64,000 nt of DNA from Asparagopsis taxiformis (lineage: Eukaryota; Rhodophyta; Florideophyceae; Bonnemaisoniales; Bonnemaisoniaceae): NCBI GenBank assembly GCA_030407315.1, contig JALQPE010002860.1, forward strand, positions 1 to 64,000, in the 5' to 3' direction. The notes below the pieces were generated by a model. That model did no database searches. It was not told the origin of the DNA and worked only from the letters and a program-made list of their open reading frames with translations. Within the stretch, counting starts at the first letter, position 1. Each line of letters starts with the position of its first letter. The position numbers and the translations under genes are program-made. Shown in pieces: positions 28,628 to 53,166 of this stretch.

Positions 28628-29165
28628 GGTGGAGTGGACTTGAGAGGAAATATGGAGCATAGTGTTGGTGTGAAGGTAAATATTGGAATGGTGTGTGGTA
28701 TACGACTGTAGTAATTGTGATAGAGTTTAACAGATAGTTGGGTGCGGGGAAGCTAGATGCTGAATAGGACGTTGTAGAAAGAAATATTGAGAGAACAAAA
28801 CATATCTGGTTTGTCTCACCGTAAGGAGAGAAAGTACAGAGTAGACTATATTATGTTGAGTTTAGCATTTCAAATTATACCTATCTCTCTTTGTAGTGGA
28901 AGTGTCGAGTAGGAGACGTCAGTCTTGTAGCGAGGTGAGGTATGCACAGGACGTGGGTGGTGGGAAAGGAAGGAATGAGCACCATCCACCTCAAAATTAT
29001 GAAAAATAACCGTTACGGAGCACTGAGAAGCATTATTATTATGTAGAGTAGAACAGGATGGATGCATCCACTGAGATGATATTTGCTACAACATTGCTGT
29101 ACTAAGCGTCACATCCTTACTTCAAAGTACTTCTCCTTTTAGCAAACTCCAATTGCAAGTTCGAG
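28628..29165. other. Leader between array 1 and gene B copy 1
   Basis: AT-rich; no gene recognised. Position suggests promoter of gene B copy 1. Confidence 0.4.
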
Positions 29166-29303
29166 ATGAATCCCGAAACTTCCGTAAGCATCGCTGCGTT
29201 TTCTGAAACAACGCGTGAAGGCTTTGCAAACATCACTGCAGAGCTTAAATTCCTGAGTGATAAAATGGATGCCGTCGAGAAGGGCACCATTGAATAGCGC
29301 GAG
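29166..29303 (+). pseudogene. Gene family B copy 1, N-terminal fragment cut by the gypsy element
   Basis: Starts MNPETSVSIAAFSE and contains REGFANITAELKFLSDKMDAVE, which aligns with REGFRTVTGEVRRIRERMDEID near the N-terminus of gene B copy 2 (53805). A short heptad-like coiled coil is likely. The sequence is cut at 29303 by the LTR of the gypsy element and the gene resumes at 42024. A TAG just before the junction and a one-base phase difference mean the gene was probably already damaged, or has lost ~50 residues relative to copy 2. Confidence 0.65.
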
Positions 29304-30092
29304 TGTAGGACCAGCCGGGACGGAGGTCACTAGGAGAGTTCTAGAATCGCTTGCCGTGTCAGGGCGTAGTGAACCGGATCGCGCTGGTGAACTTGCGTTT
29401 CGCACGTCGCGCGGTCGCGGTGGTGAACGGGTGGTACAACGGCGGAACGCGTAGGGAACGATCGCAACACGGGATTCGCGGGCCGGCGCAAGCCGTGATC
29501 TCAGGGTGAGATCACCGAGTAAACTCGAGCACAACGCGATCCACACAGGGGTCGTAAATCCCTGGCCTAGTGGCGTGCGACGCAACGCGCGCTATTGCGG
29601 TGCGACGCGGTTCGACGATCGGTCTATGCGCAGCGCGCACGCGAACGTCGGCGATCGTGAGCAACCCGCACGCAACGTTTCAACGCAATCGGTCCTCGCG
29701 ATTCGCTAAACGCTTAACTCGTAGCTGCGAAGATGCTGACTGTTTATTGGTAAAGTGCGAAGCAGAACGACCATTAATAGCTAACTACTCAGGACAGGTT
29801 GTCCTTGCGCGGCCGGCCGGCGGCCGCTCGCTCGCACGCAAAAGGGAAATATTTGGGAAAAAGACTTTCGTCATAAAAAACCCAAAAAGGGAAAATAAAG
29901 GGAAATTCGCAAAAGGCGCTACACGTGGCGCCAAGCTCGCAATCGTACGCGTTCGCGCAAGCGAGCCGTGACACGTAATTGTATCGCCACGCGTACGCTC
30001 GCTTACTAACTAACTAAACGCGGATGCACGCGGACTCAACGCGACGCATCGCTCCGACCCGCGCGCGCACTTGCAACATAAATTGCATCACA
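29304..30092 (-). repeat. Gypsy 3' LTR (789 bp)
   Basis: On the reverse strand it begins TGTGATGCAATTTATG and ends TCCTACA. The orientation is fixed by the adjacent polypurine tract. Homologous over its length to the stand-alone LTR at 22916-23721, and over its last 116 bp to 41907-42022. Confidence 0.9.
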
Positions 30093-30102
30093 CTCCCCCC
30101 GA
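30093..30102 (-). promoter_or_regulatory. Gypsy polypurine tract
   Basis: Reverse strand CGGGGGGAG stands directly before the TGTG start of the 3' LTR, the expected place for the plus-strand primer. Confidence 0.75.
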
Positions 30103-30266
30103 CTAACATCACAGCGCGTCCTCGCGCGTCATCTTCTTTCCTCACGTGCTCTTCCGTTTCCTTCGTTCTACTCTTTTCGTCTGCAGCCTCTCCTCTTTTG
30201 TTCCATCTCCTTCTTCCTTCTCTCTTGCCACCCGCGTTCGCCATCATCCTTACCGATTCGCACGCC

Positions 30267-33104: not shown

Positions 33105-35083
33105 CTATCACTTCGTTCCTCCTCCTCGCATTGCATCCTCTTTTGAAATAAACTCTCCTTGTTTGTATCTCCACCTAGCGCTTCGTAATGCGGGGTTCCT
33201 CCCGTCCGACACGCTTGCGGCCGTGAAACGCCAGGGTTCCTGCAGCTTTTGAGTGAGCGACAGCGCAACGCGGGTTCCGTCAAATGCATGCACGAGCCGG
33301 TGTTTCCGCGAAGGGGCGCGCGTGTCGTTGCTTGAAACCGTATTTGCCCGCTGCCCACGTCGGCGTTCGGAGGGCACGCGGCCGGCGGCGTCCAGTCGTG
33401 CGCGCGGGGGGAAGGGAGGGGTAGAATGCATACGCATACGTTGCGAAGCGAGAAAGGTTTGAGTGGGGGGGGGGTAGAAGAAGGGAGTCTGGACGGGTAG
33501 CGCGTCGGTACGAGTTCGTCGTAGCGGTTTCGTTTCGTCGGTTCGTCACGCGCAGTTCTCGACGTCGCTGGTTAATTTTCGCACGCGTATTCGTTGTTCG
33601 CTTCCGCTTCGCGTCGTCGATTCGCGTCGTCTTACGCATTCGTCGTTCGCGTCGCCTACTACCGGCGTTCGCCGTTTGCTACCGTGTCTATTATCCCGTG
33701 ACTATAGCGGACGGCCGAATGGTACCTAGGGGGCTCGGGTGGGGTCACATTCTTCCCTTCTTGGAGCGAGCCTCATTCTCCACGCTTGGGTTGAGGGGGA
33801 ACCATGCACGTGGGAACCACTATATTCTCGGTAGGGGGCTGCGTGCGTCCAGGGGTCTGCGTCCTTCCACCAGCTTCGAGCGCCTCGCTGGAGTTCGCGT
33901 ATGTTGTCGTCCAATCAGGTGACCGTAGTAGGGGACAGTTCGTCACGGTGCGGGGGACAGCTTGACGGCGGCGCGATTCGGGTGCCCCTTTCGTCGCATT
34001 TTTCCAATGGGACAATTCGAGTGGGACGGTAGAATTGCTAAATAGCCGGGCCAGTCCGCACGCCAGCGCCAGTGTCGCTCCCCTTTTTTCGCGCGAAAAC
34101 GCATCGCGTGGTCCCGCACATGTCGCGGCCTCTGGAGTAGGTCGGGTGTTAGTTGAGGTGAAACTCGCAACGAATCCAGAGATACGCGGCCGTTCGTACT
34201 CGCGGCGGTTCCAACGAGCGTAGTGGCGCAGTGGCCGTGTGGCGGTAGACGGTCGTTAGGCGTTACGTGGCGTAAACGGCGGATAGTCGCGTGGCGAACG
34301 AAGGCGACCGAAACGCAAGCGGCGAATATTGCGTGGCGCCTGTTTAGCGAGATTGACGCAACGTCCGTCATGGGCTTTTCGCGCTTATCGCACTTCTTAA
34401 CAGGCAACGTCTCGAGCGTTAGCGAGGGGGCTCAATATTTTCGCGGTGGTGGCGTCCCGCGCGACGCGTGTCGATGCCGGACCGACCAGCGTGTGTGAGG
34501 GCCCCTTCGTGTGTTGCCAAGCGTCGAGATTCAGGCAGTTTAGTCCGGGGCGGCGCGCCTTCGCGCGGGTAGTCGGCGCGGGTAGTAGCGCGGCGGGCAA
34601 ACGTCGAATCGAGTCCAACCTGTCAGGCGCACACGTACGCGGCTCGCGAGCGGCGTCGCTTCATTGCGCGCGGCAGTAGTTCCAGGTCATTCAGCGGTAG
34701 AATGTCGAGTGCGCGGGGAGTGGCGAACGACGATGCGACGCGTGTTGCATGGCGTACGACGAACCGGGCGTTGCGTGCCGAACGACAGAGCGTTGGCGCG
34801 AACGGCGATTGCGTGGCGTACGACGAAGCGGTTACAAGGCGTTCGAGGAAGCGTTTGCGTGTTGCGCGACGAAGCGGTTGCGTGGCGCGGCGACGCTTGG
34901 CGGCAATAAGCCGTACCCCCTTCCCGGTCCCTGCTGCCGATAGTAGTTTGGCGTGATGCAAGGCGGGTAGCTGTGTTTGCGTTTGGATGCTTACCACTGC
35001 CAGGTAATCAGCTGGCACTTGCACCGCTTCTTCGTCGACGTAAACGCGCGTGGATGGCAAACCCCCCCGCAACGCTTCGTGCA
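33105..35083. other. Non-coding spacer inside the gypsy element
   Basis: CpG-rich, about 2 kb between the convergent ends of the antisense gene and pol. Contains a run of ten or more G near 33463 and no convincing gene. It probably holds the 3' ends of both transcripts. Confidence 0.55.
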
Positions 35084-37912
35084 TTAATTGCGTTGCGCAC
35101 GAGGCGTCATTTGTCGGCTTGCAATACGCGCGCTGATGCGGGTGGGTGTCGTTTTTCGCGGCGCGTCATCGGGTGCCTCCCTCGGGGCTGAGCGCTTCGT
35201 TGAGCGACTTCGGCGGTTACGCAGCGCCGCATGGCCGTCGGCAGTAGCGCGCGCAGCGGTTTTAGAGGCGGGCCGTCCTTGATCACGGCGAAAACGGGCG
35301 ACGATAGGCGCGGGCAGGGACGCTTCGGGCTCCCACGTATCATCGCGCGGGGAGTAGCCCTTCCAGCGCACCCGGAATACGGGCGTGCCGGTATCGTCGA
35401 TGCCCTCGGCTGTCAACCTGTCAATCATGAACTCGCGCGTCCCATACCCGGCTTCCGGGTCGACCTTGCGCGCCTCGTTAATTTCGCGTCCACCCCGTCG
35501 CTCTGCGTCGTTCGCGTTCTCCGTGTTAATGTCTTCTTCTACGTCGTCCAACGTCGTTGGCGCATGCGTCGCGTAGCGCGGTGCTATGCGAACGCGGTCG
35601 GAGCTGACGAGTTCGGGGACACCGTCAATTATGATTTCGTACGTGTGTCCGCGGCAGCCTATAACCGGGAAAGGGCCCGACACAGGATAGTCTAACTTCG
35701 ACGTGTGCGCTGCGTCGCTGCGTTGCGTTCGTGTCGTCGCTCCCGCGCGAGTGTCCAGGTACACTTGATCGCCAACCTTGATATCCTTATTCACCGTGCG
35801 CACGCCGCGGTCAAAGTCGCGCTTGTATCTCGCTTGCGCTTTCTTCAACGCGTTCGCCGAGCGTGCGTACGCGTCCGATAATCGTGCGAGAAATTCCATG
35901 CGAAGGAATGGCGTGCTGCGAATCGTGTCCACTTGCTCCGTTCCCAGCGATACGGGATAGCGCGTGAGCGTAAGTTCGAACGGCGACGTATTCGTCGAGC
36001 GGTGTATCGCGCGGTTGTAAGCGTATGCTAGCGCGTCCAAATGCTCGTCCCAATCTCTGCGCTCTTCATCCACATAATGGCGCAGCGTCGCGACGATAGT
36101 GCGATTCATGCGCTCGACTTGTCCGTTCGATTGCGGATGGTACGTCGTTGTGAATATGTTCCGCGTACCCATCAGCGCGCAAGTCTCCTGAAACAGCTTC
36201 GAGCGGAATTGCGGCCCATTGTCCGAAAGTAGCGTGCGCGGCGGTCCATAGACGAAAACCCAGTCTCGGCAAAATGCCTTCGCAACGGCGAGTGCGGATA
36301 CGCGTCCGAGCGCGATGAGTCGGCAGAGTTTGCTATAGCGGTCTGCGATTACGAGTACGAAGCGGCGTTGGCGCGGAGTCTCGGGCAGCGGACCAAGGAT
36401 ATCGATAGCGACGTCTTCGAGCGGGCGCGTCGCGGGGAATAGCTTCAGGGCGTTCGTATGGCGATATTGCGTAACGCGGTTACGTGCGCACGCATCGCAC
36501 TGTCTCACTGTAGTGTAGACGTCCACGCTCATCATCGGCCAGTAGTACGCGCGTCGGATGGCGTCGTACATGCGTCGCGCGCCCGGATGTCCTGCAGTTA
36601 CCGCATAATGGTTAGCTCGCAAAATGCGCCCCTTAATCGCTTCGGGTACGACTATCTGCGTGGCGCCGTCGAGCGGCGCGGTCCTCATAAGTATCCCATC
36701 GGGAGACAGGTGAAAGCGCGACTGCGGCGCGGTTTCGACGTCGCGTTTCGCGTTTTGGCAGAATTCGTCCGTCGCCTGCTCGCGTATCCACTCGTCAGTG
36801 GACACGGGCGGTTCGATGCACGACCGAGTTGCCAGTAGGCAGTCCAAACTCGGGTAGTATTCTGCGTAGTCGCATAGTAGCGCGGTATCGGTTCGCGCAT
36901 AAGCGTCCGCGTGCGGTTCAACGATGTTCGCGGCGTCGAAGCAGGGTATCTCGTCCGGTATTTCCGTCTCTTCGCCGCTTCGCGTGGCCATTCGCGAGAG
37001 CGCGTCGGCGATAACGTGGCGTTTACCCTTTTTATATTCGACGTCGAACTCGAACTCGGCGAGTCGCAATCGCCAGCGCGCGAGTCGCCCTTCTGCAGAA
37101 GTCATGTTTAGAATCCAGCGCAGCGAGTTGTGGTCCGTGCGAACCGTGAACTTCCGTCCTTCTAGATATGCACGTAGTAGTAGCACTGCCCACACCACCG
37201 CGAGGCATTCGCGTTCCGTCGTCGAATAATTTCGCTCCGCGTCGTTAAGCGTGCGCGACCAGTATCCGACTGGATGCAATGTGTCTCCGTCGGCGTCTAA
37301 CTGTAGTAACGCGCATCCGATTTGTCCCTGTGACGCGTCGGTATCGAGCACGTATGGGTGTCCCTCGCGCGGTAGGCGAAGAATAGGCGGAGATAGCATC
37401 GCTCGTCGCAGTGATTCGAACGCGCGCGTTTGCTCCGGCGTCGGGGCGGGTAAGCTGTCTCCTTGGTCCTTCTTTAGCAACTGCGTAAGCGGCGCCGCGA
37501 AGAACGCGAATTTTTCGACGAATCGGCGGTATACGTTGCAAGTTCCCAGAAAGCTGCGCAGCTGCGTTTTCGTCGTCGGATACGTCGCATCGCGCAGCGC
37601 GTCGCATTTCGTCGTCGGTACGGATAGCTTCCCCGGCGAAATAGTATGTCCCAAATAGTCCACCGTGCGCTTGAAGAACTCAGTCTTCGCGAATTTAAGC
37701 GAAACGCCAGCGCGTCCGAGGATTCCCAGTATCTCGTCGACGTGATGCACGTGCGCGTTTACGTCGGCGGAGAAGATAATTAAGTCATCCAGGTAGACAA
37801 GGCAGTGCTGCCATTTCACGTTCGCGAGACAGGATATCGAGCGCGCGCTGAAATGTCGCGGGCGCGTTCGATAGTCCGAAGGGCATACGGCGGAAGCGAT
37901 ACGTACCAACAT
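35084..37912 (-). CDS. Gypsy Pol, second part: RT palm, RNase H, integrase, chromodomain
   Basis: Meaningful homology starts at about 37829 (KWQHC then VYLDDLIIFS, the RT catalytic motif); residues before that are the wrong frame. It continues with RNase H (LDTDASQGQIGCALL, RTDHNSLRWIL), integrase zinc region (CDACARNR), the DDE core (VAIDILGPLP, LLSDNGPQFRS, YHPQSNGQVERMNRT) and a C-terminal chromodomain (FRVRWKGYSPRDDTWEPE), which marks a chromovirus and could direct integration to marked chromatin. The frame differs from the upstream pol part: RALDIL and the following Leu-Ala-Asn-Val-Lys-Trp are separated by one extra base near 37829, inside the RT domain. Confidence 0.92.
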   Translation of the reverse strand: MLVRIASAVCPSDYRTRPRHFSARSISCLANVKWQHCLVYLDDLIIFSADVNAHVHHVDEILGILGRAGVSLKFAKTEFFKRTVDYLGHTISPGKLSVPTTKCDALRDATYPTTKTQLRSFLGTCNVYRRFVEKFAFFAAPLTQLLKKDQGDSLPAPTPEQTRAFESLRRAMLSPPILRLPREGHPYVLDTDASQGQIGCALLQLDADGDTLHPVGYWSRTLNDAERNYSTTERECLAVVWAVLLLRAYLEGRKFTVRTDHNSLRWILNMTSAEGRLARWRLRLAEFEFDVEYKKGKRHVIADALSRMATRSGEETEIPDEIPCFDAANIVEPHADAYARTDTALLCDYAEYYPSLDCLLATRSCIEPPVSTDEWIREQATDEFCQNAKRDVETAPQSRFHLSPDGILMRTAPLDGATQIVVPEAIKGRILRANHYAVTAGHPGARRMYDAIRRAYYWPMMSVDVYTTVRQCDACARNRVTQYRHTNALKLFPATRPLEDVAIDILGPLPETPRQRRFVLVIADRYSKLCRLIALGRVSALAVAKAFCRDWVFVYGPPRTLLSDNGPQFRSKLFQETCALMGTRNIFTTTYHPQSNGQVERMNRTIVATLRHYVDEERRDWDEHLDALAYAYNRAIHRSTNTSPFELTLTRYPVSLGTEQVDTIRSTPFLRMEFLARLSDAYARSANALKKAQARYKRDFDRGVRTVNKDIKVGDQVYLDTRAGATTRTQRSDAAHTSKLDYPVSGPFPVIGCRGHTYEIIIDGVPELVSSDRVRIAPRYATHAPTTLDDVEEDINTENANDAERRGGREINEARKVDPEAGYGTREFMIDRLTAEGIDDTGTPVFRVRWKGYSPRDDTWEPEASLPAPIVARFRRDQGRPASKTAARATADGHAALRNRRSRSTKRSAPREAPDDAPRKTTPTRISARIASRQMTPRAQRN

Positions 37913-39314
37913 GCGACGTAAACGTAGTCTTGTCGCGGTTGGCGTGCGCTACTGGGATCTGCCAGTATCCCGAGTTGCAGTCCAGCGTAGTGAAAACCGT
38001 CGCGTTACCAAGCGAATCGACGCAATCGTCCATGCGCGGAATCGGATACGCGTCCTTGACGGTGGCGGCGTTTAAGCGGCGGTAGTCGATGCAGAAGCGG
38101 GAAGTCCCGTCCTTCTTAGGCACGACTACGACCGGGCTCGCCCATTCCGATGTAGCAGGTTCGATCACTCCAGCGCGGAGCATCTTATCCACTTGCGTAC
38201 GAATAATTTCGCGCGACGCGTGTCCGGCGCGGTACGGCGGTTGGTTGACGGGGGTCGCCCCCGGAACCAGTTCGATGCGGTGTTCTGTCGCGTGGATGGC
38301 TCCGAGCGTGCCATTCCACATGCGCTCGTGCTTTCGCAGCATTTCGATAATTCGCGCGTGTAGGTCGTCGTCTACTCGCTCATCGCGTAGCGTCGCGCGT
38401 AAGAGATCTTCCCAATGCGGCGTCGCGTTCGCAGTTCCGTCGGCTTCGCGCAGGTCCGGCGGGTTCGTCGCGTTGCGTGGCGTCGCATCGTCGGGCGGTC
38501 GGTCTTGCGGGGTCGGTGCCTCTTGTGCAACTTGTAGGCAACCTACGGGGTTGGGCACCGCGGCGCCCACCTTCATGCCTTTGGGCAATACCTGTAGGCG
38601 TGTGCCGGCGTTGTGCACATGCACACTGAAGGGCACGTTCCTTTTAACCTGCGTTTCACCATTGGCTAGACGCAACAACTTCTGTCCGTAGAGGTCGGTC
38701 GCGGGTATCGTGATGCAGCGTCCGTCGGCGCCCGCGGTGACTTCGATAGCTTGCGTCGCGTGCGGCGGAATTGACGTGCGGCGCGCAACGCGGATTGGTG
38801 CGAAATCTGTTGGTCGGGTAGTCTTGGGGGTCGGTGCGCGGCGCGGTTTCGTCGGCGTGCGTGGGAGCATCGGAACGTGGTCTCCATAGCGGGTTCGCAA
38901 CGCGCGCTGCGGCCCAGTATAGATCATCCGAACCACGCGGTCGATGAAGTCTGCTCCCAGAATGCAAGGGACGGATAAGCGCGGCATCACCAGGAAAGTT
39001 TGAAGGTACGCGCGGGCACCTAGAAGAACGCTAAGTCGCAATGACGCGTTCGGCGCGAGGCGTTGTCCATTCGCGTCGATAATCGCGCAGCGCAGCGTCG
39101 GCGGCGTAGCGAGGCGCTTCCAATCAGCGCCTAATACGTTCTCGCGAATGAGGCTCGGGCCCGCGCCGGTATCAAGCACAGCGGTCACCGCGGTGGCCGT
39201 GCGTAGATTATATCCGACGCGTATCTCGAGTTTGTAGTTCGCGGTAGGGTTCTGAAACAGGACCACTGTTTCGGGTGGTAACGGAGGCGGTTTTTCGCGC
39301 GGCGGTTGCGTCAT
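37785..39314 (-). CDS. Gypsy Pol, first part: protease and N-terminal RT
   Basis: Starts MTQPPREKPPPLPPE at ATG 39314, 44 nt after the gag stop and in a different frame, so pol is reached by reinitiation or another recoding step. Aspartic protease active site VLDTGAGPSLI (~residue 47). RT motifs follow: KDGTSRFCIDYRRLNAATVK, FTTLDCNSGYWQIP and FRRMPFGLSNAPATFQRALD. After RALDIL the frame is lost by an apparent one-base insertion and runs into a stop at 37785. The catalytic YLDD lies in the downstream frame, so RT made from this copy would be dead unless recoded. Confidence 0.9.
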   Translation of the reverse strand: MTQPPREKPPPLPPETVVLFQNPTANYKLEIRVGYNLRTATAVTAVLDTGAGPSLIRENVLGADWKRLATPPTLRCAIIDANGQRLAPNASLRLSVLLGARAYLQTFLVMPRLSVPCILGADFIDRVVRMIYTGPQRALRTRYGDHVPMLPRTPTKPRRAPTPKTTRPTDFAPIRVARRTSIPPHATQAIEVTAGADGRCITIPATDLYGQKLLRLANGETQVKRNVPFSVHVHNAGTRLQVLPKGMKVGAAVPNPVGCLQVAQEAPTPQDRPPDDATPRNATNPPDLREADGTANATPHWEDLLRATLRDERVDDDLHARIIEMLRKHERMWNGTLGAIHATEHRIELVPGATPVNQPPYRAGHASREIIRTQVDKMLRAGVIEPATSEWASPVVVVPKKDGTSRFCIDYRRLNAATVKDAYPIPRMDDCVDSLGNATVFTTLDCNSGYWQIPVAHANRDKTTFTSHVGTYRFRRMPFGLSNAPATFQRALDILSREREMAALPCLPG

Positions 39315-39358
39315 CGCGCGTCGCGTATCCGTTGGATGGAGAGGAGTCGGCCCACCCG

Positions 39359-41329
39359 CTACGACTCCTCGTAGGCGTTTCCCGGGTCTTCTGCGAAGCG
39401 AACCGAGTGGGGCGTGAGCTGCTCGCCGTCGTGCGCGTCGTCTTCGCGCGTGCGTTCGCTTTCGCGCTCGCGTGCGTCATCGTCCGCGGAAACTTCGAAA
39501 ACCTGAACGTTACGCTGCAGGTTCAGTTCTTCGGGTGTTAGGCGCGCGTGGCTATGCATCTCGCGAATCGCAGCCTGTTGCTCGGATGAGAGCAGCGGGC
39601 AGCTTACCATGGGATGCCCAAACTTCCGGCATATCAGACAGCGGAACGCCGCTGTGCGAGACGTGTCGGCCGGGGCCGTCTGTCTCACGATAGGCGGTGG
39701 GTAAGTTGCGCGCGGTATGTGCGCCGTGTACGGTCCCGCGCGTTCGCGTTCTCGGTCGTCGTTATGCGCAAAGCGTCGCGAGCGGTCGGCGGGCGATGCG
39801 TCGCGAGAGCGTGGCGTGCGATAATTCGACGAAGGGGTGCCAAGCGAGGTTGGACTTCGCATGGGGCTCGGGGTCGAGAACTTCCGTTCGCGCGGAGCGT
39901 GCGGCGTCGCGGCGGAGGTTGAGACATTTGGCGATGAGAAGCCTGATGGCGGGGTATGCCCCACGGTCAGCGCTTGCACCGTTGGTGTCTCCCCCTCTTC
40001 CACGTAGAGTGCCGGCGTTCGTCGCAGTAGCGGTCGCGCGCTCGTCGTCGGCGTCATCGCTCGGTGCTTGTCCCCGTGGCTCTGCGCCATAGAGACTAGC
40101 TCTCGAAAGGTGTATCGACGCGGGTCGCGAGACAGCGCGTCCCGCACGAGGTGTTGCGCATAGGGTCGTAGACCATCGACGAAAATAGAAACAAGCGTTC
40201 GCTCGCTAAACGCATCGCCGCAGCGCAGCGCGCGGCGTCGTAGTCTCGTAGCGAATTGCGTTTCGGTTTCCTTCGGGTCTTGCGTTTGTTGCGCCACGTC
40301 ACGATACGCTTGCGCGACGTCGCCTTCGCGCGCATAGGTTAGCAGGAGCCACTGAACGGCTTCCGCGTAGCACGTAATCGAGTCGACGCCCGCGCGCGCT
40401 CCTCGGAACGTTCGTCCCACGTACGTTTGGAACGTGTCGCGCGCCTCGTCGGCCAGGAAATACTTGAGAATTGGCAACGCTGCGCCTTCGGATACGCCGG
40501 CGTGGTCGCATGCGCTCTTGAAATACTTCAGGAACGATAGCACGGCGATTCCGTCAGCGCCCGTGAAATTCTCTCCTTGCATCGAATGGCGCACCATTTT
40601 CGCGGTGTTAGCCAGTTCGCTCGCAATTGCTCGGTTAAACGCGCGGTCCGTATTACGCAGGCGGTACGTGCGATACGAAAGCGCGCGCGTGAACAGCTCG
40701 TTCAACGGCTGGATCTCTACCAGCCCAGGATGCGTGGGTCCATCGTCGCTATCCGAACGCGGGTGGTCGTCGAATGACAGGTCCCGGCGCGCCAGTTCCA
40801 GCCATCCTTCGGGGTCCGCGTTGCGCGTGTAGTTCGTAGGGGTCGCGCGCGCTGCGGTTCGCGTTCGGTTTTCGCGCGCAGCGACGTTCGCCCGTTCAAT
40901 ATTGTGCTCCTCGCGGGAGTCCATCGTAGTGACGATTAGGTTGTGGACTTGCGCCCTCATCTGAGCCGTCAATCCACGTGATTGGCCCTTGATGGCGCGG
41001 TCCACAGCCGCTCGTACTTCAGACTGGAGCATGCATTGGAACGTAGGGTCGTCCACTACTTGTCGAACCAAGCTCGGGAGCGTTGCGGACGGCGTAGCGT
41101 GCACGTCGGAAACGCGGAACTCGGCCTCGCGCTTCGTTGCGGCGCCATCGTCGGACGTTTGCGCGTCGTCGTCGATGCTCGCGAGCGCTTGCGTCGGTAA
41201 CGGCGGCCACGGAGAAGCGGTAGGGTCAGGGATATGTGAAGCGACCAGTGCGTCGACTGCGTGCGTTAGCGACGCGACTGGCGGCGGTTCGGTCGGCGCG
41301 TTCGATCGCTCGGGCGCGGATGGATCCAT
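39359..41329 (-). CDS. Gypsy Gag with CCHC zinc knuckle
   Basis: 656-residue intact frame from ATG 41329. The middle has the usual retrotransposon Gag helical region (FTGADGIAVLSFLKYFK, ~250-400). A zinc knuckle near the C-terminus, CLICRKFGHPMVSC, fits CX2CX4HX4C exactly and would bind the genomic RNA. The tail is acidic and Glu/Asp/Arg-rich. Lies next to the 5' LTR remnant with a leader of ~575 bp. Confidence 0.9.
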   Translation of the reverse strand: MDPSAPERSNAPTEPPPVASLTHAVDALVASHIPDPTASPWPPLPTQALASIDDDAQTSDDGAATKREAEFRVSDVHATPSATLPSLVRQVVDDPTFQCMLQSEVRAAVDRAIKGQSRGLTAQMRAQVHNLIVTTMDSREEHNIERANVAARENRTRTAARATPTNYTRNADPEGWLELARRDLSFDDHPRSDSDDGPTHPGLVEIQPLNELFTRALSYRTYRLRNTDRAFNRAIASELANTAKMVRHSMQGENFTGADGIAVLSFLKYFKSACDHAGVSEGAALPILKYFLADEARDTFQTYVGRTFRGARAGVDSITCYAEAVQWLLLTYAREGDVAQAYRDVAQQTQDPKETETQFATRLRRRALRCGDAFSERTLVSIFVDGLRPYAQHLVRDALSRDPRRYTFRELVSMAQSHGDKHRAMTPTTSARPLLRRTPALYVEEGETPTVQALTVGHTPPSGFSSPNVSTSAATPHAPRERKFSTPSPMRSPTSLGTPSSNYRTPRSRDASPADRSRRFAHNDDRERERAGPYTAHIPRATYPPPIVRQTAPADTSRTAAFRCLICRKFGHPMVSCPLLSSEQQAAIREMHSHARLTPEELNLQRNVQVFEVSADDDARERESERTREDDAHDGEQLTPHSVRFAEDPGNAYEES

Positions 41330-41906
41330 CGGCGCGGTTGCGTTCGATCGTCGCCTCGGGAAAATGGAAAAAGGGATGATGGGGAAGGGAAAAGGGGAGT
41401 TCGGCGCGCATCAAAATCTCGCGTCGGCGCGTCGAAAAATTGGCAAGTAAAAAGGGAAGCGCTTCCCGAAAATTGTCTGCGTATCGGGCGCGCGTAGTAA
41501 GGGTGAGGGGGACGAGTTCGCTCGCAGGAGGGCTTCTTACTCGCTCGAAACGCGTGAAGACGGGTCTCGATCGCTCGCGAACCCAATATTTTCGGCACCG
41601 CCGAACCCGAGTTAGGGTTGCGAACTAGCGCGCGCACGCGCTGCGTCTTCGATCGCGTCGTTCCGCGCTGCGAACCGTCGTAGTAGAGATAGGGTAGTTA
41701 TACAAACCAGAGAGGCTATAGCACCGCTTCAGGGATAGCGATACGCGCGCACGCGTCAATCGCCCTCGCTGTCGCGCACGACGAACGGATAAAAGAAGAA
41801 TTAGAGTAAGCGATAGGTTTGGCGTCCCGTGTTTTCCCCAAGCGGAGTTTCTGTGCTTCGCTGAGTTCGCACGTCGGTTCGCGCAATTCTAGGTCGAGAG
41901 ACCAGT
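41330..41906 (-). other. Gypsy leader and likely primer-binding site
   Basis: Untranslated leader between the 5' LTR remnant and gag. On the reverse strand the LTR end TCCTACA is followed two bases later by TGGTCTCTCGACC, starting TGG as expected for pairing with a tRNA CCA end. The tRNA is not identified. Confidence 0.5.
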
Positions 41907-42022
41907 TGTAGGACCAGCCGGGACGGCGGTCACTAGGAGAGTTCTAGAATCGCTTGCCGTGTCAGGGCGTAGTGAACCGGATCGCGCTGGTGAACTTGCG
42001 TTTCGCACGTCGCGCGGTCGCG
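41907..42022 (-). repeat. Remnant of the gypsy 5' LTR (116 of ~789 bp)
   Basis: Matches 29304-29419 nearly base for base and keeps the U5-side end next to the primer-binding site. The U3/R side is missing; at 42023 the sequence passes directly into gene B. Confidence 0.88.
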
Positions 42023-42023
42023 A

Positions 42024-43283
42024 GAGCGTCTCCGCATTGCGCAGGATGCGGAGAAATCGTTAACGTTCGAAATGGTGTATTCTGTGCTGTGTGCTGTTGT
42101 TACAACGTACACGAAGGCAATGGTGGATAAGAGGGATAGGCATTTCAACGGATGCGAGCTAATCAATATGCTGATGTTTGCCAGGCAGAGCAATGAGCGA
42201 AAGGATGTGTTCAATAGGACGCTTGACGGCCGGAACCACATTGAATTGCGCTGCCAAGTTGTGACATCTTTAATCAAGAATACATGTCAGAACAGTTCGT
42301 TCAGAGAAGGCGGAGACCGTTCCAGCTCGAATGGAACGTCGGAATGCATCGAACGATGGAGGGCGCGGGGGTATGTGACTACCGGGACCATTGAAGAGAC
42401 AATTCGCGGAACGGACTCTGGTCGCATGGATGGAATGCAAGGGGCATCCGAGGGAAGTGATGGGCCCGCTCGAAAGCAGAAGCGAAGAAAGGTTGGTGAC
42501 AATGGGCCGTTGCACAGAAAGGAGGTAGGCGTCACTGTGACGAAATCGGCACTCACGGCAGTGACCGGGTTTATGAACAAGTCCAGAGACCATGTGCGGA
42601 ACCGGTTCATCCGAGATCTTGGATTCGTTCTATACAGTGGGTTTCAAGGTTCAGTCCGAATGGAGCATCATTTGCACGACGGTGGGCTGGACATTGAGTC
42701 AGTTCCAAGTCTGTACTCGGCGCAGAGGAAAATGAATGCAGCGGAGCGCGCAGCAATGGATGACAAGAATGTGAAGATTCTTCGCGACTTCATTGCTGTG
42801 CGGAAAGAAATGGTATTCAGAGTGGAGTACGAAGTTCAAATTATTGGAGAACCGGACAAAAGGTTTGTGAATAGGAGGATCAATTTAGTAGAGGTTGCAC
42901 TGAACTTTGCGGTAGCGTACATGCAATGTTCGGATAGGAACATGGTACTGCGACGCTCGGAACACTCCTTGCAATTCATCTACATACTGGCATACGGGTT
43001 CCGAACGATTTTGAAATTTCAAAGTGGAGCAGAGGTGGGAGGAGCGCAAATCCGGGAAATCAATGAAGCAGTGAAACTGCTTCTTCCCGGGGAGCGGGTG
43101 AGTAGTCGGTTCATGAATGAGGAGGTTTTGACTATATCGCGTGATAGATATGAAGAACTGAATGTAGACGATGGAGGGGACTCAGTGCTGGAGGAGAGCT
43201 TCAGTTCTATGGAAGAGGACGGAGGAGATGAAGAATATGTGAAGGTATTTGTCGATGATGAAATCGAGAATGAAGGGGAGTAG
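42024..43283 (+). pseudogene. Gene family B copy 1, main body downstream of the gypsy insertion
   Basis: 420 codons open from the gypsy junction; the first ATG is at 42072. It begins ERLRIAQDAEKS, matching DRLRISQSAEIS of copy 2, and then aligns along the whole length: MLMFARQSNERKDVF / MMFAKQSNDKRDVF, HRKEVGVTVTKSALTAVTGFMNKS / SNREISLAVTKVALTKVLGFLNKS, RRINLVEVALNFAVAYMQC / RRINILEVALNTAIAFLQC. The C-terminus is acidic (DEEYVKVFVDDEIENEGE). No known domain recognised. The body is uninterrupted, so selection may have held until the gypsy insertion split off the N-terminus. An AATAAA follows at 43328. Confidence 0.75.
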
Positions 43284-45105: not shown

Positions 45106-48100
45106 ATGGAAGGAACGTTCCACAATCACGGTGAAAAGCACGACGGATGGGTGTTCATAGACCCGAATCAAGTCAGCAAATTCGTATCGATTCGCGATGT
45201 TGATGGAAGTCATGTGGAAGCGCTCATGGAGAGCATTCGCAACAGCGGTTATGACACAGCTCATCCCGTGACTGGCAGGTTTCGAGAAGGCGTTCTGGAG
45301 ATATTGGATGGAGCACACCGCTGCATGGCAATTGTACGTGGAATGGAGAAGGGCGTCTGTCCTCCTGGCGTTACGATTCCTATGCGAGAAGAGTCTATCG
45401 TGGCGGACACCAACAGCAGTACTGCTGTTGTGCTGGACCGTGTGAGAGCGACGACATCCAACGACATTGCAGGCCTGCAAAGGCGCATGATGTTTTTTGA
45501 GTATCTGATGATCGCCGTTGATCTCAGAGACGAGTACTGGGTCCAAAAAGGAAAGGAAAAGTACGCTCATATTTCGTCTGTGAGGATGGCTGATGTGTTG
45601 GGCTGGATCAAATCCTGCGATCCAAGCGGCCAAATTGCTTCAAGCCTGAGTGGTAAACCGCAGTACAGCTCATGCATGTCTATCCTGGCTGTGCTTTGGC
45701 CGTATCACCGAGCAGAAGACTCGAGTGCGATTGATTTGCGTCTGTGGCAAATGTTTTGTCATGCATGGGGACTCAATGCAGAGATGGGTGATTCTCCGAG
45801 GATGGTTGAGTTTCCGAAACAGGTGGGGGTGACTAGTTCTCGTGCGTCGAAATGTTTGGCAAGACACCCCGCGGAGAATTGTCCTCTCCACTGAACCGCG
45901 AACTGCTTTCGAGCAGGTACTTTCTGGACGGCGCTACATCCGACATGCAAGATTCTTTGCAGGCTAGCCAGAAGCGGTTCAGGAGGCTGATGGTTATGAT
46001 GTGCCAGTGCATCTTGGCTATTCGCAGTAAGGAGATTGGTAGTGTGCCATCTAGGCGGGCCAGAGCCACATCCGGGGCCATTGGTGGTGGTAGAATGGTT
46101 GGAATTGCAACATCCAGTGCGCAAGCCAACCAGCTTGGATTTGTTGTCGACCGTGTGTTAGCTGCGTGGGATACCGGGGCAAGAGTGTTGGGGTATGAGG
46201 ATGTTGAATCGATGTGCTGGCCGTTCATGGTATTCGATCCCGCGAGCCTTTGCTTCAGGTCACTCCCGAATCGGTCTGATGGCTGTGCGGTCGAGGAGCA
46301 TCGAAAAAACCTGACCATTGTCCCGAAAACTGTAGACAGTGAAAACGGGTTCTGTGCCGACCTTCCAGTGGCTGTGGACGCAAGGCTGCGATCATTGACA
46401 AGCGCCTTCCTGCTGTCGATACGCCAATGTGTCACTGAGGTGAATGTGTTCGCCGAGCGTGGTCAGCTGATGCAGAGACTTCGAGCCTTGCTTTTCGACA
46501 CTCCTGATAAGTTCGGCTTGAACTCGTTCATGCGAGCCAAGTTGAACACGTCTCGTGCCCTGGATGGTCAGAGGAGGCTGAAGGCTTGGTTATTGCGAAC
46601 CCGAGAGCAACGAAAGCTTCCTCTGACCATGGATGAGTTGCACAGTCTTGAGGATACGCCCGAGCCTGGCATCCTTGAAGGTGCACCTGCGCATATGGAA
46701 ATATCCGCAGCAGTGCCAAACAATGGCAGCGAGGATACAGAAGAGGATAGTCTGGAGCCACAGAGGAAGAAGGCTAGGCTGGAGCGCGGTGGTGGAGAGG
46801 ACGATAATGCGGCGGTTGCTAGCGAAACAGCAACAAGAGAAGGTGCGGCCGAGGATGACGCTATGGATGTTGACACTGTATCGCTTACAGAAGCACCGCT
46901 CGTTGACGTCGGAAAGGAAACCAAGCCAGAATATGTCACCAAGCTGGAAGCTGTGATGGGGCGTTACATTCACACTGTGAATTGTGACGCCACTGATGTA
47001 GCCAAAGAGATGGAGGACAAAATTAGTTTCCTGGAAGATGGCGTGTTGGAGGACAGTGTTCAGCTTGTGCTCACTGATCCTCCATTCAACACGAGGCGGG
47101 AAGGCGGCAGAGAAAACTCGGAGTACGATATTCTGGAGCCGGAAGAGTTGGCGAGTGTTGCGTGTGAAATAGTTCGAGTTCTTCGGCCTGGCGGTCATGC
47201 TCTAATCTATTCCAGCGTGCACCAACTCGTGGCATGGATGGATGCAATCAGAAATGCCGAGCCTGGCAAGATGATTGTGGACAGTGTTCCAGTCGTGCTA
47301 TCTCGCCGACCACACAGCTTTAAGTCCAATCCATCGACGAAAACGTGCACACTGCATAATATGCACGATTTCGTTATCCATGCGTATAAGCGGGGGAAGG
47401 GTATGGCTGCGTACGATATGGTGGATTACAGGTTGCACAATCCGGACATATCGAGGCACCCTGGGTTCACCAACGCGATTGACAACGTTCCGAGGTTGTC
47501 GGCTGGTGAAGCTCAATACGATGGGCAGAACAACCGACTGCGCCATGAGCAGAAGGCGTTGACCACTCTTCGTGAGCTTCTGGAACGATTTTCGAAGCAG
47601 AACGTATCGTGATGGATTTCTTCTCGGGAACGTACAGCACAGCCATAGCGTGTATGACGTTGAGGGATGGTACGTATCGTCGGTTCATTGGGTGTGAGAA
47701 GGAAAAAAGGTGCCACGATGCATCGCAGGAGTGGATACTGCATGCTTTCGTCAGTGAGGTGAAAGCCGGGCGATATGGGGGGATCTTGCAGCGTGAGGTG
47801 GAGAGTATTCTTGGGGACGAGTCGGTACCGGTCACAGGAAAAGCTCCAAGGCTTCGGCAGAAGCACATCTCAGATGCACCAGAAGGTTTACCTGCTGTGA
47901 CAGCATTGCCGAACCATCTGCTTGTGTTCGTTGCGTCAATGAAGAAGGACGGTTCTATGCTTCACAGATTGAGCGGGGTGCCTATGGACCAGTGGCCGGC
48001 CGAGGACATGCACTCGTTTTGGAGCATAGACCCGGACGCGATTCTGGCTGCTGATGCCGCATTCTACGGTGTCTATGTTTCGCAATCGGAGGTAAGAGGT

Positions 48101-48571
48101 GGTGGGTTTGGCGTATTCGCGGCGAAGAAACTGAAGAAGGGGACGGTCATTGGCTGGTACAACGGGACGATTTTCTATGCGAAGATTCGAGACTCGGAAC
48201 CGCAGAGATCAGTGATGTACGGCCCGGAAGGATTTGGGTGCACAGGACAGAGGTTCCAGGACTACAACATGGAATTGGAAACCACGTACATAGGGAGGGG
48301 TGCACCTGTTCGGAAGGTCTGGCTCGTTCCAGCGGTCTATAATTGTACCAGCTACCTCAATGATTGTCGGGTCATTGACGGAACGGAGAAAGCGACCGAG
48401 GTGAGTCGAACACAGTCAGCCGAGTTTCGACAAGGCGATGCCATAGACAAACCGGACTTTGCTTCAAATATCAAGAATCCCCATGCTGTCAAGGTCGTTC
48501 TGACCAGAGACGTTGAAGCTGATGAGGAGATATTTGCTGACTATGGTAGAAAATATTGGGCAGCTAACTGA
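45106..48571 (+). pseudogene. ParB-like / amino-DNA methyltransferase / SET fusion protein, copy 2 (two frame changes)
   Basis: Start ATG 45106 in GCCATGG. ParB/DGQHR-like domain at ~20-90: HVEALMESIRNSG, then VLEILDGAHRCMAIVRG. A middle region shares GFVVDRVLAAWDTGAR with copy 1, then an acidic linker with a basic patch (EPQRKKARLER). Methyltransferase: VQLVLTDPPFNTRRE (DPPF encoded at 47076-47087), LRPGGHALIYSS, RLRHEQKALTTLRELLERFS, motif I MDFFSGTYSTAIACM (~47612-47656). SET domain to the end: GGGFGVFAAKKL, IGWYNGT, SYLNDC, EIFADYGRKYW. The order matches beta-class DNA methyltransferases; DPPF favours adenine-N6 but does not exclude cytosine-N4. One frame change lies between 45823 and 45890 (a 41-nt GT-AG interval 45823-45863 would restore phase); the other is a one-base loss near 47602. 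All catalytic motifs remain. Confidence 0.85.
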
Positions 48572-48860: not shown

Positions 48861-49152
48861 TGTTTACCGGGGATGCTGATAGCAAAGTCATCGTTACGAT
48901 GACTTTGCTGTAAGAAAAGAAAACATTACAGCAGCCACGATTCTTTACCGGGTAAAAAATTCTTCGGCCACTGCAAGGAAACGGTTCCTTACAGCAAAGT
49001 CATTGTTACGATGACTTTGCTGTAAGAAAACAAATCATTACAGCGGCCACAATTATTTACCCGGTAAAGAAATCGTGGCTGCTGTAATGTTTTCTTTTCT
49101 TACAGCAAAGTCATCGTAACGATGACTTTGCTGTAAGGAACCCTGGTAAACG
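48861..49152. repeat. Large foldback element with three CAGCAAAGTCATCG palindromes
   Basis: Outer ends GTTTACCGGGG...CCCTGGTAAAC are inverted. Inside, 48907-48955 (GTAAGAAAAGAAAACATTAC...) is the reverse complement of 49050-49104. Three near-identical 31-bp palindromes with 15-bp arms (CAGCAAAGTCATCGT / ACGATGACTTTGCTG) lie at 48880-48910, 48992-49022 and 49103-49133. Situated ~290 bp after the SET coding end, the same relative place as the other foldbacks after copy 1, but of unrelated sequence. Confidence 0.88.
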
Positions 49153-49641: not shown

Positions 49642-50157
49642 CTATCTATTGCTCCTATCGTACTTGTAATATTCGACGGTGTGGATGTGGTCCGTGAGGA
49701 CGTCCTTCTCCGTCTTCAAGTAGATGTGGCCGCGCGTGGGCAGGCCATAGACTAGCTTTTCGCCCGCAGGAATATCTCCGCGCTTGAAGCCGACCCCGTA
49801 ATGGTAAAGGTCACCGCGACCAACCAATACGGAATAGGGTGGCACATAAAGCCTATGAATGGGAACCTTCCACATATCGGCGTCCGGATTGGCCAGGCAT
49901 ACATGACTATAAGGGGCAGCTACTATAGAGAATCCATCTGCTCCGCTCGACATCATGAAGTATGATGGAGACTCGGTAGGTCCTGCAACACGACTCGTTG
50001 ATACCTTGAAGTCCGTGTGCCCATCCTGGTCCGCAGCCCCATCTGCTGTAAGAAGCAGCCGCAATCCTGTCTTCGGGAAGAAGACAGGATCATCACCCTC
50101 CCAGTAAGCCTTAAAGATGTACCAAAGATGGCCGCATGATGAACCTATGACATGCAT
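49642..50157 (-). CDS. Gene D, unknown 171-residue protein
   Basis: Intact frame from ATG 50157 (MHVIGSSCGHLW). No firm family. The C-terminal half is strand-rich with a turn pattern VPPYSVLVGRGDLYHYGVGF; a Pro-Pro...GD.xHxG pattern like this occurs near the metal site in some cupin or 2-oxoglutarate dioxygenase folds, so a double-stranded beta-helix is conceivable. I do not see a full HxD...H triad and give this only as a hypothesis. It is downstream of, and same-strand as, ParB-like gene E, 190 bp apart, and converges on methyltransferase/SET copy 2. Confidence 0.55.
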   Translation of the reverse strand: MHVIGSSCGHLWYIFKAYWEGDDPVFFPKTGLRLLLTADGAADQDGHTDFKVSTSRVAGPTESPSYFMMSSGADGFSIVAAPYSHVCLANPDADMWKVPIHRLYVPPYSVLVGRGDLYHYGVGFKRGDIPAGEKLVYGLPTRGHIYLKTEKDVLTDHIHTVEYYKYDRSNR

Positions 50158-50350
50158 GGTGTTCCTCTGATGTACGGATAAGGAACATTTGCTCTTCAGC
50201 TGATGGCCGCATAGCGATACACCAATGATGGACGGGAGATGTCCATACGCTCATCTCCCGGACATCAGCGAAGTATCTCTTGCGTACACTAGCGATATCA
50301 CGTACATCATTGGTTCATCTAAAGCATATCAGGGGTACATATTCATTTTC

Positions 50351-53166
50351 TTATAGGGCCTCCATTCCCAGCTTGAGAAACTCCGCACAAACACCAAGAG
50401 CAAGCTCTGCCACCAACTTGTTCTTATACATATCCAAATTCCCCTCCTCCAACTTATCGCACAACTCACGCCGTGGCAGAGAGAGGCGCCCACGACCACC
50501 ATCTATGCGGTCCTTCGCATCACCCACGTTGTGGATGAACTGCCACGGCGAAGGATCGAAGCCGGGCTTTGCGAAAGCTGGCGGCTCGTCCTGTGGCTCC
50601 CTGTCGTCATCGTTAGAATCAGACTGCTGGGAGGGTTTTTCAACCTCCTCAACCAGCGGGAACTGCCTAGCGAAGTGACCGAACAGCTCATGCGTCGCAC
50701 TCCCAGCCGTGGACGATTCCAATAAGCGTTCCAAAACAATAACCCCCAAGTTCTCCAGCAACGCCAGCTTCACCGCAAAGTACTGTTCCACCACCGTTTC
50801 CTCAGCTCCCGGCGATGCAGCTACCTGGAATGCTGCCGCCCTCATTTCCGCCCGAACCGTCTCCACCGTCGTACTTTCCATATAGTACTTCATCCGGCTG
50901 CCAGACGCAATTGCGCTGGGGAGAACGGCGGCCACATTCTCATCGACGATGCTGTCGGGAATGGGATTCTCCTGGGCGTCGTCGAACTGGAGAACCGGCT
51001 CCCGAGAACGACCTCGGGAAGCCAACTTGGATTCTTTGACGACGACTTTGATGAAGTCTCACCGAGCCTTCTCTTTTTGGTAGAAGGCTCGGGCGTCGCA
51101 GAAGCTGCTTCCAAGTTACGCTTCCCGAGGATGGAGCTTTCACCCGCATCCTCGGGGGCGCTCTCCAGCTCAACGACCTCCACAGCACCACCCGCCGTTC
51201 CACCACGACCGGAACGACTCGCTTGCAGGCGGGCACTCCTTCTGGGCATCACTTTCCTCCCAGAAGTTTCCACTCCGGGCGGTGCAGAACCACTGACTTC
51301 AATGACATCTTCGTCAGGATCTGCACCTCCCTTCGCACTGCTGCCCTCGACCACATTCTCGGGAATAGGGCCCTCCGTCGAAATCCTCGCAACCGTCTTC
51401 TGTCCAACCCCACCGGATGGTGAAGGGACGAAACTGTCATCGCTGGAGCTTCCCGAACTGCTAGCAGATGCAGAACGGGAAGCTTCGACAGCGGGGGCCG
51501 GAGCAGCAGGGTGCTGCTCGGCAGCCGGAGTCGCAGGCTCAGGCTGCGAAGCCGGTGAGACCTGCTCCTGCGCGGCTTGGACAGGACGGTTGGGGGTACC
51601 AGTCCCGGCGTGGGATACTGGACCAGACTGTTCACTGCCAGCCTGGGGACCACGCGCAGTCGGCTTGACCGGGGTCACCGCAGGGGAGGATGCAGACACG
51701 GCAGGGGTAGTGAGAGGAAGAGGGGCAGCCTCAGAATCGCTGGAAGACTCCAGTTGAGGTGGTGGGGGCAAAGGAATGGAGGATGAAGGGATGGGCAAGG
51801 AATTGGAAGAGGAAGGGATGGGGGCATCATCACCACATGTGGCTGGGAGCGCAGCATGTGGGATGTCTGGGTACATCGCGTGAAAGCGTTTCTGGATAAT
51901 CATGTCGCGGTACCCAGTGACGCGCAGGAGCATTTTCCTGGCGTCCTTCCCGAAGACAGACTTCTTACGGGGAAAAATGTTCTCCGACTTGTAACCATCG
52001 GGGGGGGGGCCTTCCTTGGGACGGAAGTCTGCCCAACACCCCTTCTTGGGGACCATCTGAGCAAGAACTTCGACAACGCGCGAGCGAATGTCGAAGCTCT
52101 TGCTCGGGTCACCCACGCTGGGAAATGACCCATCCAGCATCCTCAACACATCCGACACGTTCCAATACTCGGCCACCTCCTTCACGTACCCGAAGATTTC
52201 CAACAAACCAGCAATCCATTCCTGCCCAATGGTACCAACCGAGTACGGTTTCAGCCCGGCCGACCGACGGCTACAAGTGTAGCGCGCCGTCATCTCAAGG
52301 ATGAAACACTTTTGGACGTCCGGTGCACTCCTGAACGACCCATTGAACAACAAGTTCACCGTACACCCAGCCAGATCTTCAGTTGAAGAAAACTGAACGA
52401 ACTCCGGCCTGTTCGGAATACTCGACCAGTATTTGAAAGCAGGGCTTTCAATGGTCTTGAAACCTTGGTCAATGGAGACGTAGCGCATGAGCTGTCTCGG
52501 ACGAATCCAGCTCAGCGCTTTCCGTTCTTTAATGTACTGAGCGGTCGGCTCGATCTTCTTCTTTCCCAGGCGGTGGATATTGATGAACTCCATCACAGAG
52601 CACACATTGTCAGCAACTGTTACCTCGCTGACATTGTGGGTGTGGAAGTTCATCAGCCGTGAAAGCGGGAGTACTTCTTCGGAGCAGAAGACATCCCGGC
52701 CAAGCCGAGTCGGTGGGAGGAGAAAGTCGACTGGAATGGTTCCAAATCGACCGTAAATGTCTGAACTGACAAACCCCTCCCACTCTGGACTGTCCTTCGC
52801 AGGAGCAGGTCCAGCCGACTCGAGAATGGCCTTCAACGCGGTCACTCGGTGAGATCCATCGACGTATTGCAGTCGGACTTTTGCATTGGAATCAATCACC
52901 TCGCAGACGGACACGCGTGAAGCAATCACGGAAAATCCCTGAGTGAGAAACGTTTTCTTCAACTCATCAACGCGATGCGGCCTGACCACCCTGGACACGA
53001 CTGCCGGAGGAGAAACATCCAGGGGGGAAATGAAGACTGGAATGTTTCGGCAGCTCTCCGGACTTATATCGTAGTCCACATCCACCGGGATGGGCACTGT
53101 GCCAGCACTACTGAGTTTGAGATCAAAAAATGTAGTAAATTTACTGCCTGAGGCAGTAAAAATCAC
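50351..53166 (-). CDS. Gene E: ParB/DGQHR-like protein with long disordered region, frame change near the end
   Basis: A second type of ParB-like protein. The readable frame begins at the edge of a palindrome array without a good ATG, so the true start or a first exon is uncertain. ParB-like part at ~55-130: RPHRVDELKKTFLTQGFSVI then LQYVDGSHRVTALKAIL. A folded ~250-residue region follows (SRLMNFHTHNVSEVTVADN), in the place the related proteins have their middle domain. Then comes a long Pro/Ser/Ala linker with acidic and basic patches (RNLEAA...STKKRRLGE). At about 51025 the frame shifts; the rest (50351-51025: QPVLQFDD-like start to KLGMEAL) is helical and acidic. GTGAGA in this stretch could start a short intron (29 or 50 nt keep phase). 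No methyltransferase or SET domain. Divergent from gene B copy 2. Confidence 0.7.

What the first reader, a model, noticed from the sequence alone, without database searches (positions are those of the whole stretch)
45106..48571. ParB-like + bacterial-type DNA methyltransferase + SET domain in one eukaryotic protein
Seen directly: one locus encodes, in order, a DGxHR ParB-like motif, DPPF with downstream HEQK and FxGT motif I of a beta-class amino-DNA methyltransferase, and a SET domain with GxG, YxG and DYGxxYW. A diverged second copy at 23955-27435 has the same methyltransferase-SET order. A DNA methylation writer joined to a histone-methylation-type writer would couple two chromatin marks. 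A bacterial-type DNA methyltransferase has been reported in bdelloid rotifers (a cytosine-N4 enzyme), but I know of no ParB-methyltransferase-SET fusion.
Basis: partly seen in the sequence, partly recalled or inferred. Interest (0 to 1): 0.93.

Follow-up and report, generated by a model that had tools for sequence, protein, structure and literature searches.

The report
Transposon-borne ParB–DNA-methylase–SET fusion protein
An alga, likely a red one, holds at 121 or more places a near-identical gene of a transposon-like element, and intact copies encode one protein joining a predicted ParB-like domain, a bacterial-type DNA methyltransferase domain and a SET domain, which would likely mark the element's own DNA and the histones packed on it.

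Summary
At 45106-48571 the window encodes a ParB-like domain, a beta-class amino-DNA-methyltransferase and a SET domain, in that order. This copy has two frameshifts. The same genome (141 Mb; nuclear phycobilisome-linker genes, so likely a red alga) has 121 scored places, the window included, matching the 331-aa C-terminal piece at 99% identity or more; 97 of them lie in an open frame of at least 1186 aa. The protein is 1155 aa from its ATG. Eleven of 17 examined copies, on 11 contigs, are identical over 3465 bp.

It is an accessory gene of a CACTA-ended element, not a host gene. The cassette is ORF1, ORF2, ParB-MTase-SET, palindromes, and a second ParB-like protein with an HxD...H tail. A related MTase-SET family lies at fixed spacing from Plavaka transposases (37 of 43 pairs). 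For the window's own element no transposase and no right end were found.

ParB-MTase proteins of algal transposons are already in print; the SET fusion was not found in nine literature searches, but two key works could not be read. Most likely mechanism (inferred): ParB-guided writing of a base mark (6mA favoured) and a histone-lysine mark on the element's own copies, against host silencing. New variant of a known kind.

The parts
28258..29303 (+). Left end of the element (CACTACGGTGTTG, then AGACAGTAAATTTACTGTCT-type palindromes) and start of ORF1 (aa 1-46 at 29166-29303)
   Evidence: Same terminus with different flanks in the window, C1577 and C1569; 201-bp end: 875 candidates, 40 scored, all 40 full length at 99% or more; ORF1 tblastn
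29304..42022 (.). LTR retroelement inserted into ORF1 (116-bp direct repeats, 99.1% identical); not part of the element
   Evidence: Repeat pair and ORF1 continuity; ORFs look gag/pol-like by eye (recalled, not searched)
42015..43280 (+). ORF1, aa 87-508 of a 508-aa protein of unknown function
   Evidence: 92.9% identical to the intact ORF1 in C1577
43562..44591 (-). ORF2 (453 aa in intact copies, unknown function), broken here: about 329 bp present in other copies are missing at 44106
45106..48571 (+). ParB-MTase-SET gene, window copy with two frameshifts (intact copies: 1155 aa)
45142..45420 (+). ParB/sulfiredoxin-like domain (residues 13-105; DGAHR)
47040..47728 (+). Beta-class amino-MTase domain (residues 646-875; TDPPF before FSGT), crosses the second frameshift
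48104..48547 (+). SET domain (residues 1001-1148)
   Evidence: PF00856 5e-7; 5 of 5 members
48876..49137 (.). Three palindromes TTACAGCAAAGTCATCGTWACGATGACTTTGCTGTAAG (up to 2 mismatches) between the two convergent genes
   Evidence: 6 strand-wise matches, none in 100 shuffles; exact core in 29 of 49 loci then held
49645..53105 (-). Second ParB-like gene (DGSHR) with a C-terminal HTD...YH...R domain; broken here
   Evidence: intact relative P0005, 1086 aa
53106..56999 (+). Second CACTA-ended element inserted in the first: left end CACTACTGAG at 53106, ORF1 paralogue 53853-55322 (39%), ORF2 paralogue 56019-56590 on the minus strand (29%), remnant of a ParB-MTase-SET N-terminus 56580-56999 (59% to P0002, 26% to P0001)
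23955..27435 (+). Diverged, broken MTase-SET copy, closest to P0003 (41% over 412 aa)

Best explanation
This is an accessory gene of a likely recently amplified, transposon-like element in a likely red alga, and its protein is predicted to bind the element's own DNA through a ParB-like domain and to write there both a DNA base mark (likely N6-methyladenine) and a histone-lysine mark, which would likely keep the element's copies active against host silencing. Shown: the MTase-SET architecture in intact copies, the number of matching places, the constant gene cassette, the shared CACTA left terminus, and a synonymous excess between copies. Predicted: the ParB-like fold. Inferred: ParB-directed targeting (perhaps to the element's palindromes), both catalytic activities, and the anti-silencing outcome. 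The second ParB-like protein of the same cassette, with an HxD...H tail, may be an opposing or complementary modifier (motif level only).
For: 121 scored places at 99% identity or more over the 331-aa C-terminal piece (120 of them over residues 9-331), 97 of 121 in an open frame of at least 1186 aa (recount). 11 of 17 examined loci (reference included) identical over 3465 bp, and 13 of 17 with the full 1155-aa ORF. Same terminus with three different flanks. Same cassette order in a sister element whose proteins are 26-39% identical to the first element's. Domains. TDPP invariant in 8 of 8 relatives; SET tyrosine in 5 of 5. Differences between copies favour synonymous sites: window copy 18 nonsynonymous to 20 synonymous against 75% nonsynonymous expected, p 3e-4. 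A related MTase-SET group lies at two fixed spacings from Plavaka transposases, 37 of 43 pairs. Precedent: transposon-encoded epigenetic enzymes and anti-silencing proteins (PMC12730594, passages), and the same proposal of binding and marking the own sequence for the ParB-MTase of brown algal Sola1 (PMC12477816, passage).
Against: No transcript, methylome or biochemical data. No transposase and no right end found for this element; its 11 pairs with Plavaka hits show no repeated spacing (only 123 of 1208 Plavaka candidates were scored). Different flanks were shown for three copies only; some contigs look like near-duplicates of each other (for example C2216/C2217), so not every place need be a separate insertion. 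The His of the SET NHS motif is Asp in 5 of 5, so lysine methyltransferase activity is uncertain. The structure model is weak overall (pLDDT 39.7), the Foldseek E-values for the ParB part are only 0.01-0.02, and Pfam finds no ParB. One of the five diverged copies tested does not reach p 0.05 for synonymous excess (L030). Anti-silencing was chosen over silencing by analogy only.
Confidence: 0.48

Rival explanations
1. Transposition regulator: the methyltransferase marks the terminal and internal palindromes so that a transposase supplied in trans (likely Plavaka-type) acts only on freshly replicated or unmarked copies, as Dam methylation does for some bacterial transposons (recalled). SET opens chromatin at donor or target.
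For: Palindrome-rich left end and internal repeats; Plavaka transposases at fixed spacing to related MTase-SET genes; beta-class MTase similar to CcrM.
Against: No transposase found in the window's element; no methylation target known.
Confidence: 0.22
2. Self-limitation or rival suppression: the dual writer installs repressive marks on its own or competing elements, restraining damage to the host.
For: Bdelloid N4CMT, a bacterial-type MTase, puts 4mC on transposons alongside silent chromatin marks (PMC8885841, abstract and passages).
Against: 121 near-identical places and 11 of 17 examined loci without a difference point to recent, poorly restrained spread.
Confidence: 0.15
3. Passenger cargo: captured coding sequence carried along with little function, kept intact only because copies are young.
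For: Identical copies leave little time for decay.
Against: Synonymous excess between more diverged copies; a 43%-identical full-length relative with the same domains; MTase and SET kept in order across diverged families.
Confidence: 0.1
4. Endogenised virus or other non-transposon element rather than a cut-and-paste transposon.
For: Right end not found; viral matches exist for the MTase part and, by fold, for the ParB part separately.
Against: The CACTA terminus is shared with two nested insertions in C1577; no viral family over its cut-off among Pfam matches for the cassette ORFs or parts tested; 0 of 46 viral relatives examined has a ParB motif in the MTase ORF.
Confidence: 0.05

Closest known systems
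[quoted passage not shown]
   Same: ParB-like plus N6/N4 amino-MTase, about 1100 aa, carried by a DNA transposon as accessory gene (PMC12477816, passage)
   Different: No SET domain is mentioned in the passage; Sola1, not a CACTA-ended element; the two works it cites (Iyer 2011; Petroll 2025, Bostrychia) are not held and were not read
SET genes in HarbingerS and MuDR transposons of oomycetes
   Same: Transposons carrying a SET histone-methyltransferase gene (PMC12730594, passage)
   Different: No fused DNA methyltransferase or ParB is mentioned in the passage
TET/JBP-encoding DNA transposons of fungi (Kyakuja, Zisupton, Plavaka and others)
   Same: DNA transposons, Plavaka among them, carrying a DNA-modification enzyme (PMC12730594, passages)
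   Different: An eraser-type dioxygenase rather than a two-mark writer; other domains
Bdelloid N4CMT
   Same: Bacterial beta-type amino-MTase fused to a eukaryotic chromatin domain (PMC8885841, passages)
   Different: Chromodomain reader, SPPY motif and 4mC, host gene acting at transposons; here a SET domain, DPPF/DPPY, gene carried by the element
CcrM / M.MboII / TTHA0409 beta-class MTases
   Same: Domain fold and motif order IV before I
   Different: Stand-alone bacterial enzymes, 16-25% identity over the aligned residues

Membership tests
Beta-class amino-DNA-methyltransferase (N6_N4_Mtase) | Profile match over the curated cut-off | tested here: met
   PF01555 60.9 bits, cut-off 26.7, on an intact copy; the two window pieces alone stay below it
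Beta-class amino-DNA-methyltransferase (N6_N4_Mtase) | Catalytic [DNS]PP[YFW] followed downstream by the FxGT SAM motif | tested here: met
   TDPP at 657-660 and GT at 842-843 of P0001, 8 of 8 aligned
Beta-class amino-DNA-methyltransferase (N6_N4_Mtase) | Methylation of adenine N6 or cytosine N4 | not testable with these tools
   No activity data
SET lysine methyltransferase | SET domain profile | tested here: met
   PF00856 over cut-off; 5 of 5 members
SET lysine methyltransferase | GxG, YxG and C-terminal tyrosine | tested here: met
   Invariant in 5 of 5
SET lysine methyltransferase | NHS motif | tested here: not met
   ND[CSP] in 5 of 5; PR-type SET domains also depart from NHS (recalled)
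ParB/sulfiredoxin-like domain | Fold | tested here: met
ParB/sulfiredoxin-like domain | Sequence profile match (Pfam) | tested here: inconclusive
   No Pfam hit; PHROG ParB-like E 0.003; PDB profile search without a ParB hit
ParB partition protein | parS binding, CTP switch, sliding clamp | not testable with these tools
   Palindromes exist; binding unknown
CACTA/Plavaka-type DNA transposon | CACTA terminus | tested here: met
   CACTACGGTGTTG at three insertion sites
CACTA/Plavaka-type DNA transposon | Terminal inverted repeat at the other end and target-site duplication | tested here: inconclusive
   Right end not reached or not recognised in the letters available
CACTA/Plavaka-type DNA transposon | Encodes a transposase | tested here: inconclusive
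   Window family: none found, no fixed spacing to Plavaka hits. Related MTase-SET group: fixed spacing, 37 of 43 pairs
Fe(II)/2-oxoglutarate dioxygenase (second ParB-like gene) | HxD...H with profile or fold support | tested here: inconclusive
   H65, D67, H137 and R160 invariant in 4 of 4 aligned, three of them close relatives; no dioxygenase hit in Pfam or in the PDB profile search, model unusable

The most novel reading that the evidence does not exclude
A selfish DNA element carries its own epigenetic operating system: a single-chain dual writer that marks both DNA bases and histones, addressed to the element's own palindromes by a bacterial-type ParB clamp, with a second ParB-guided dioxygenase as eraser in the same cassette. 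It would spread through the genome by giving every copy a private chromatin state.
Probability: 0.25. Interest if true: 0.93.

Novelty: new variant of a known kind. Interest (0 to 1): 0.74.

Why it matters
Known couplings of DNA and histone methylation use a reader of one mark joined to a writer of the other: N4CMT, plant CMT3 and KYP (PMC8885841, passages). Here two writer-type domains sit in one protein, on a mobile element, with many intact near-identical copies. If active, it would be a self-contained test of whether a transposon can dictate its own chromatin, it would give bacterial-type base methylation in an alga a defined writer, and it would be a candidate tool for placing two marks at one address. 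Long-read data of this alga would test it directly.

Tried and rejected
Introns as the reason for the three frames: rejected, since intact copies are single ORFs and the window copy has indels. A host chromatin gene: rejected by copy number. Direct descent from a phage ParB-MTase fusion: not supported. Phage tblastn matched the MTase part only (4 records, 5). The viral scan with P0001 found no relative.

Profile search of the protein database with eight diverged members returned only P0001. Both that search and searches scored only the 7988-7994 candidates sharing most words, so relatives may be missed. PDB profile of the ParB part gave one unrelated chain at E 1.1; that of the HxD...H tail gave two unrelated chains at E 1.5 and 1.7; the model of P0005 was unusable (pLDDT 32.8). 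SET does not appear in the fold listing, whose rows span mainly residues 15-98 and 646-867. No target-site duplication could be shown. Rows dropped: the 10 higher-scoring SET rows of the 150 were left out. Only scored candidates are in the counts: 150 of 2605, 121 of 2371, 150 of 1661, 123 of 1208, 40 of 875. One search examined 17 longer loci; the short loci L010-L020 were not in it.

Literature: nine searches, seen as listings with the starts of abstracts. Passages seen: PMC12730594, PMC12477816 (and two of five parts of its reference list), PMC11244446, PMC12695648, PMC8885841, PMC13076208. Petroll 2025 and Iyer 2011 are not held, so the SET fusion may already be described there.

Full report
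WHAT IS THERE. Pfam finds N6_N4_Mtase in two halves and SET. The genome holds the same gene unbroken elsewhere. A search with the 331-aa C-terminal piece (end of the MTase plus SET) scored 121 of 2371 candidates; all 121, the window included, are 99% identical or more over that piece, and 97 of the 121 lie in an open frame of 1186 aa or more (recount). The protein is 1155 aa from its ATG. Of 17 longer loci examined, 13 have the full ORF, and 11 on 11 contigs (the reference included) are identical over 3465 bp. On an intact copy both domains pass their curated cut-offs: N6_N4_Mtase 2.3e-16 at 652-875 and SET 4.2e-6 at 1001-1148. Against the intact gene the window copy has two indels, so it is a relic.

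THE ELEMENT. Copies in C1577 and C1569 are 99.94% identical over 12.8 kb. Their left edge is CACTACGGTGTTG, also at window 28258, with three different flanks. From there the cassette is ORF1 (508 aa, +), ORF2 (453 aa, -), ParB-MTase-SET (+), palindromic repeats, and a second ParB-like gene (-). In the window a 12.7-kb LTR retroelement splits ORF1 (29304-42022, 116-bp repeats at 99.1%), and another CACTA-ended element interrupts the second ParB-like gene at 53106. That second element has the same order: an ORF1 paralogue (39%), an ORF2 paralogue (29%) and a ParB-MTase-SET N-terminal remnant (26% to P0001, 59% to P0002). A cassette conserved at this divergence is a unit, not an accident. The right end was not found.

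RELATIVES. In a database of 5.8 billion proteins, with 7991 candidates scored, four relatives were reported: P0001; P0002 (43%, full length, SET and MTase listed); P0003 (called DNA modification methylase by its source; its C-terminal piece matches SET); and P0004, which lacks the ParB part. The same genome holds ParB-MTase families without a SET match (L024, L031, L032) and a second, multicopy SET group. Where both were scored (8 places), its SET match starts 402-403 bp after an MTase match on the same strand, and the intact example L026 carries both domains. For 140 SET rows of this group and 123 Plavaka transposase rows, 43 pairs lie within 40 kb: 28 in the +5.2 to +5.6 kb bins on the opposite strand and 9 in the -9.4 and -9.8 kb bins on the same strand. 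These MTase-SET genes therefore likely ride in Plavaka elements. The window family shows no such spacing (11 pairs), so it may be moved in trans or carry a transposase not recognised here.

HOST. Thirteen phycobilisome-linker matches, some on contigs (C340, C38) that also carry SET rows of the second group, point to a red alga; a glaucophyte is not excluded.

CONSTRAINT. Differences between copies are synonymous more often than chance (75% nonsynonymous expected at a transition weight of 2): window 18 N to 20 S (p 3e-4), L023 8:9 (0.014), L027 19:16 (0.007), L028 21:16 (0.014), L030 15:10 (0.08). L021 has one difference only. The comparisons share one reference and are not independent.

MECHANISM. 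Shown: MTase-SET architecture, number of places, cassette, terminus, synonymous excess. Predicted: ParB-like fold. Inferred: the ParB-like domain finds the element's own DNA, the MTase writes a base mark, SET writes a histone mark, and the pair keeps copies active. The Ectocarpus authors propose binding and epigenetic modification of the element's own sequence for the ParB-MTase of Sola1; SET adds a second layer. Rivals are control of transposition, self-limitation and passenger cargo.

PRIOR ART AND NOVELTY. ParB-MTase transposon proteins (PMC12477816) and SET genes in transposons (PMC12730594) are in print; their fusion was not found in the searches. The most relevant red-algal paper (Petroll 2025) could not be read. 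Hence: new variant of a known kind.

Noticed in passing
29304-42022: LTR retroelement with 116-bp LTRs at 99.1% identity and large open frames (three on the minus strand, one on the plus), inserted in ORF1 of the element.
   Followed up: partly
5158-10059 (+) and 10209-14465 (-): Two long open Copia-like polyprotein frames (1633 and 1418 aa) facing each other (named by eye, not searched).
   Followed up: no
67-3087: 1006-aa ORF with a MULE transposase domain (3.8e-7).
   Followed up: no
49645-53105 (-); P0005: Second ParB-like protein of the cassette with an HTD...YH...R tail, possibly a dioxygenase; the protein search with a relative returned only P0005.
   Followed up: partly
L024, L031, L032: Further ParB-MTase families of the same genome without a SET match, two of them (L024, L031) with Cys-rich C-termini.
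   Followed up: partly
L047:830-3733 (+): 968-aa ORF joining the HxD...H tail to an N-terminal part related to window 61279-61860 (42%); looks like a chimera with an unidentified, perhaps transposase-like, protein; no Pfam hit.
   Followed up: partly
L045:1-3712: Inverted, end-truncated second copy of the element abutting the left end in C1569 (head to head).
   Followed up: no
57111-57336 and 59630-60458: Arrays of a 118-bp tandem repeat containing AATAATACCCGGTATTATT-type palindromes.
   Followed up: no
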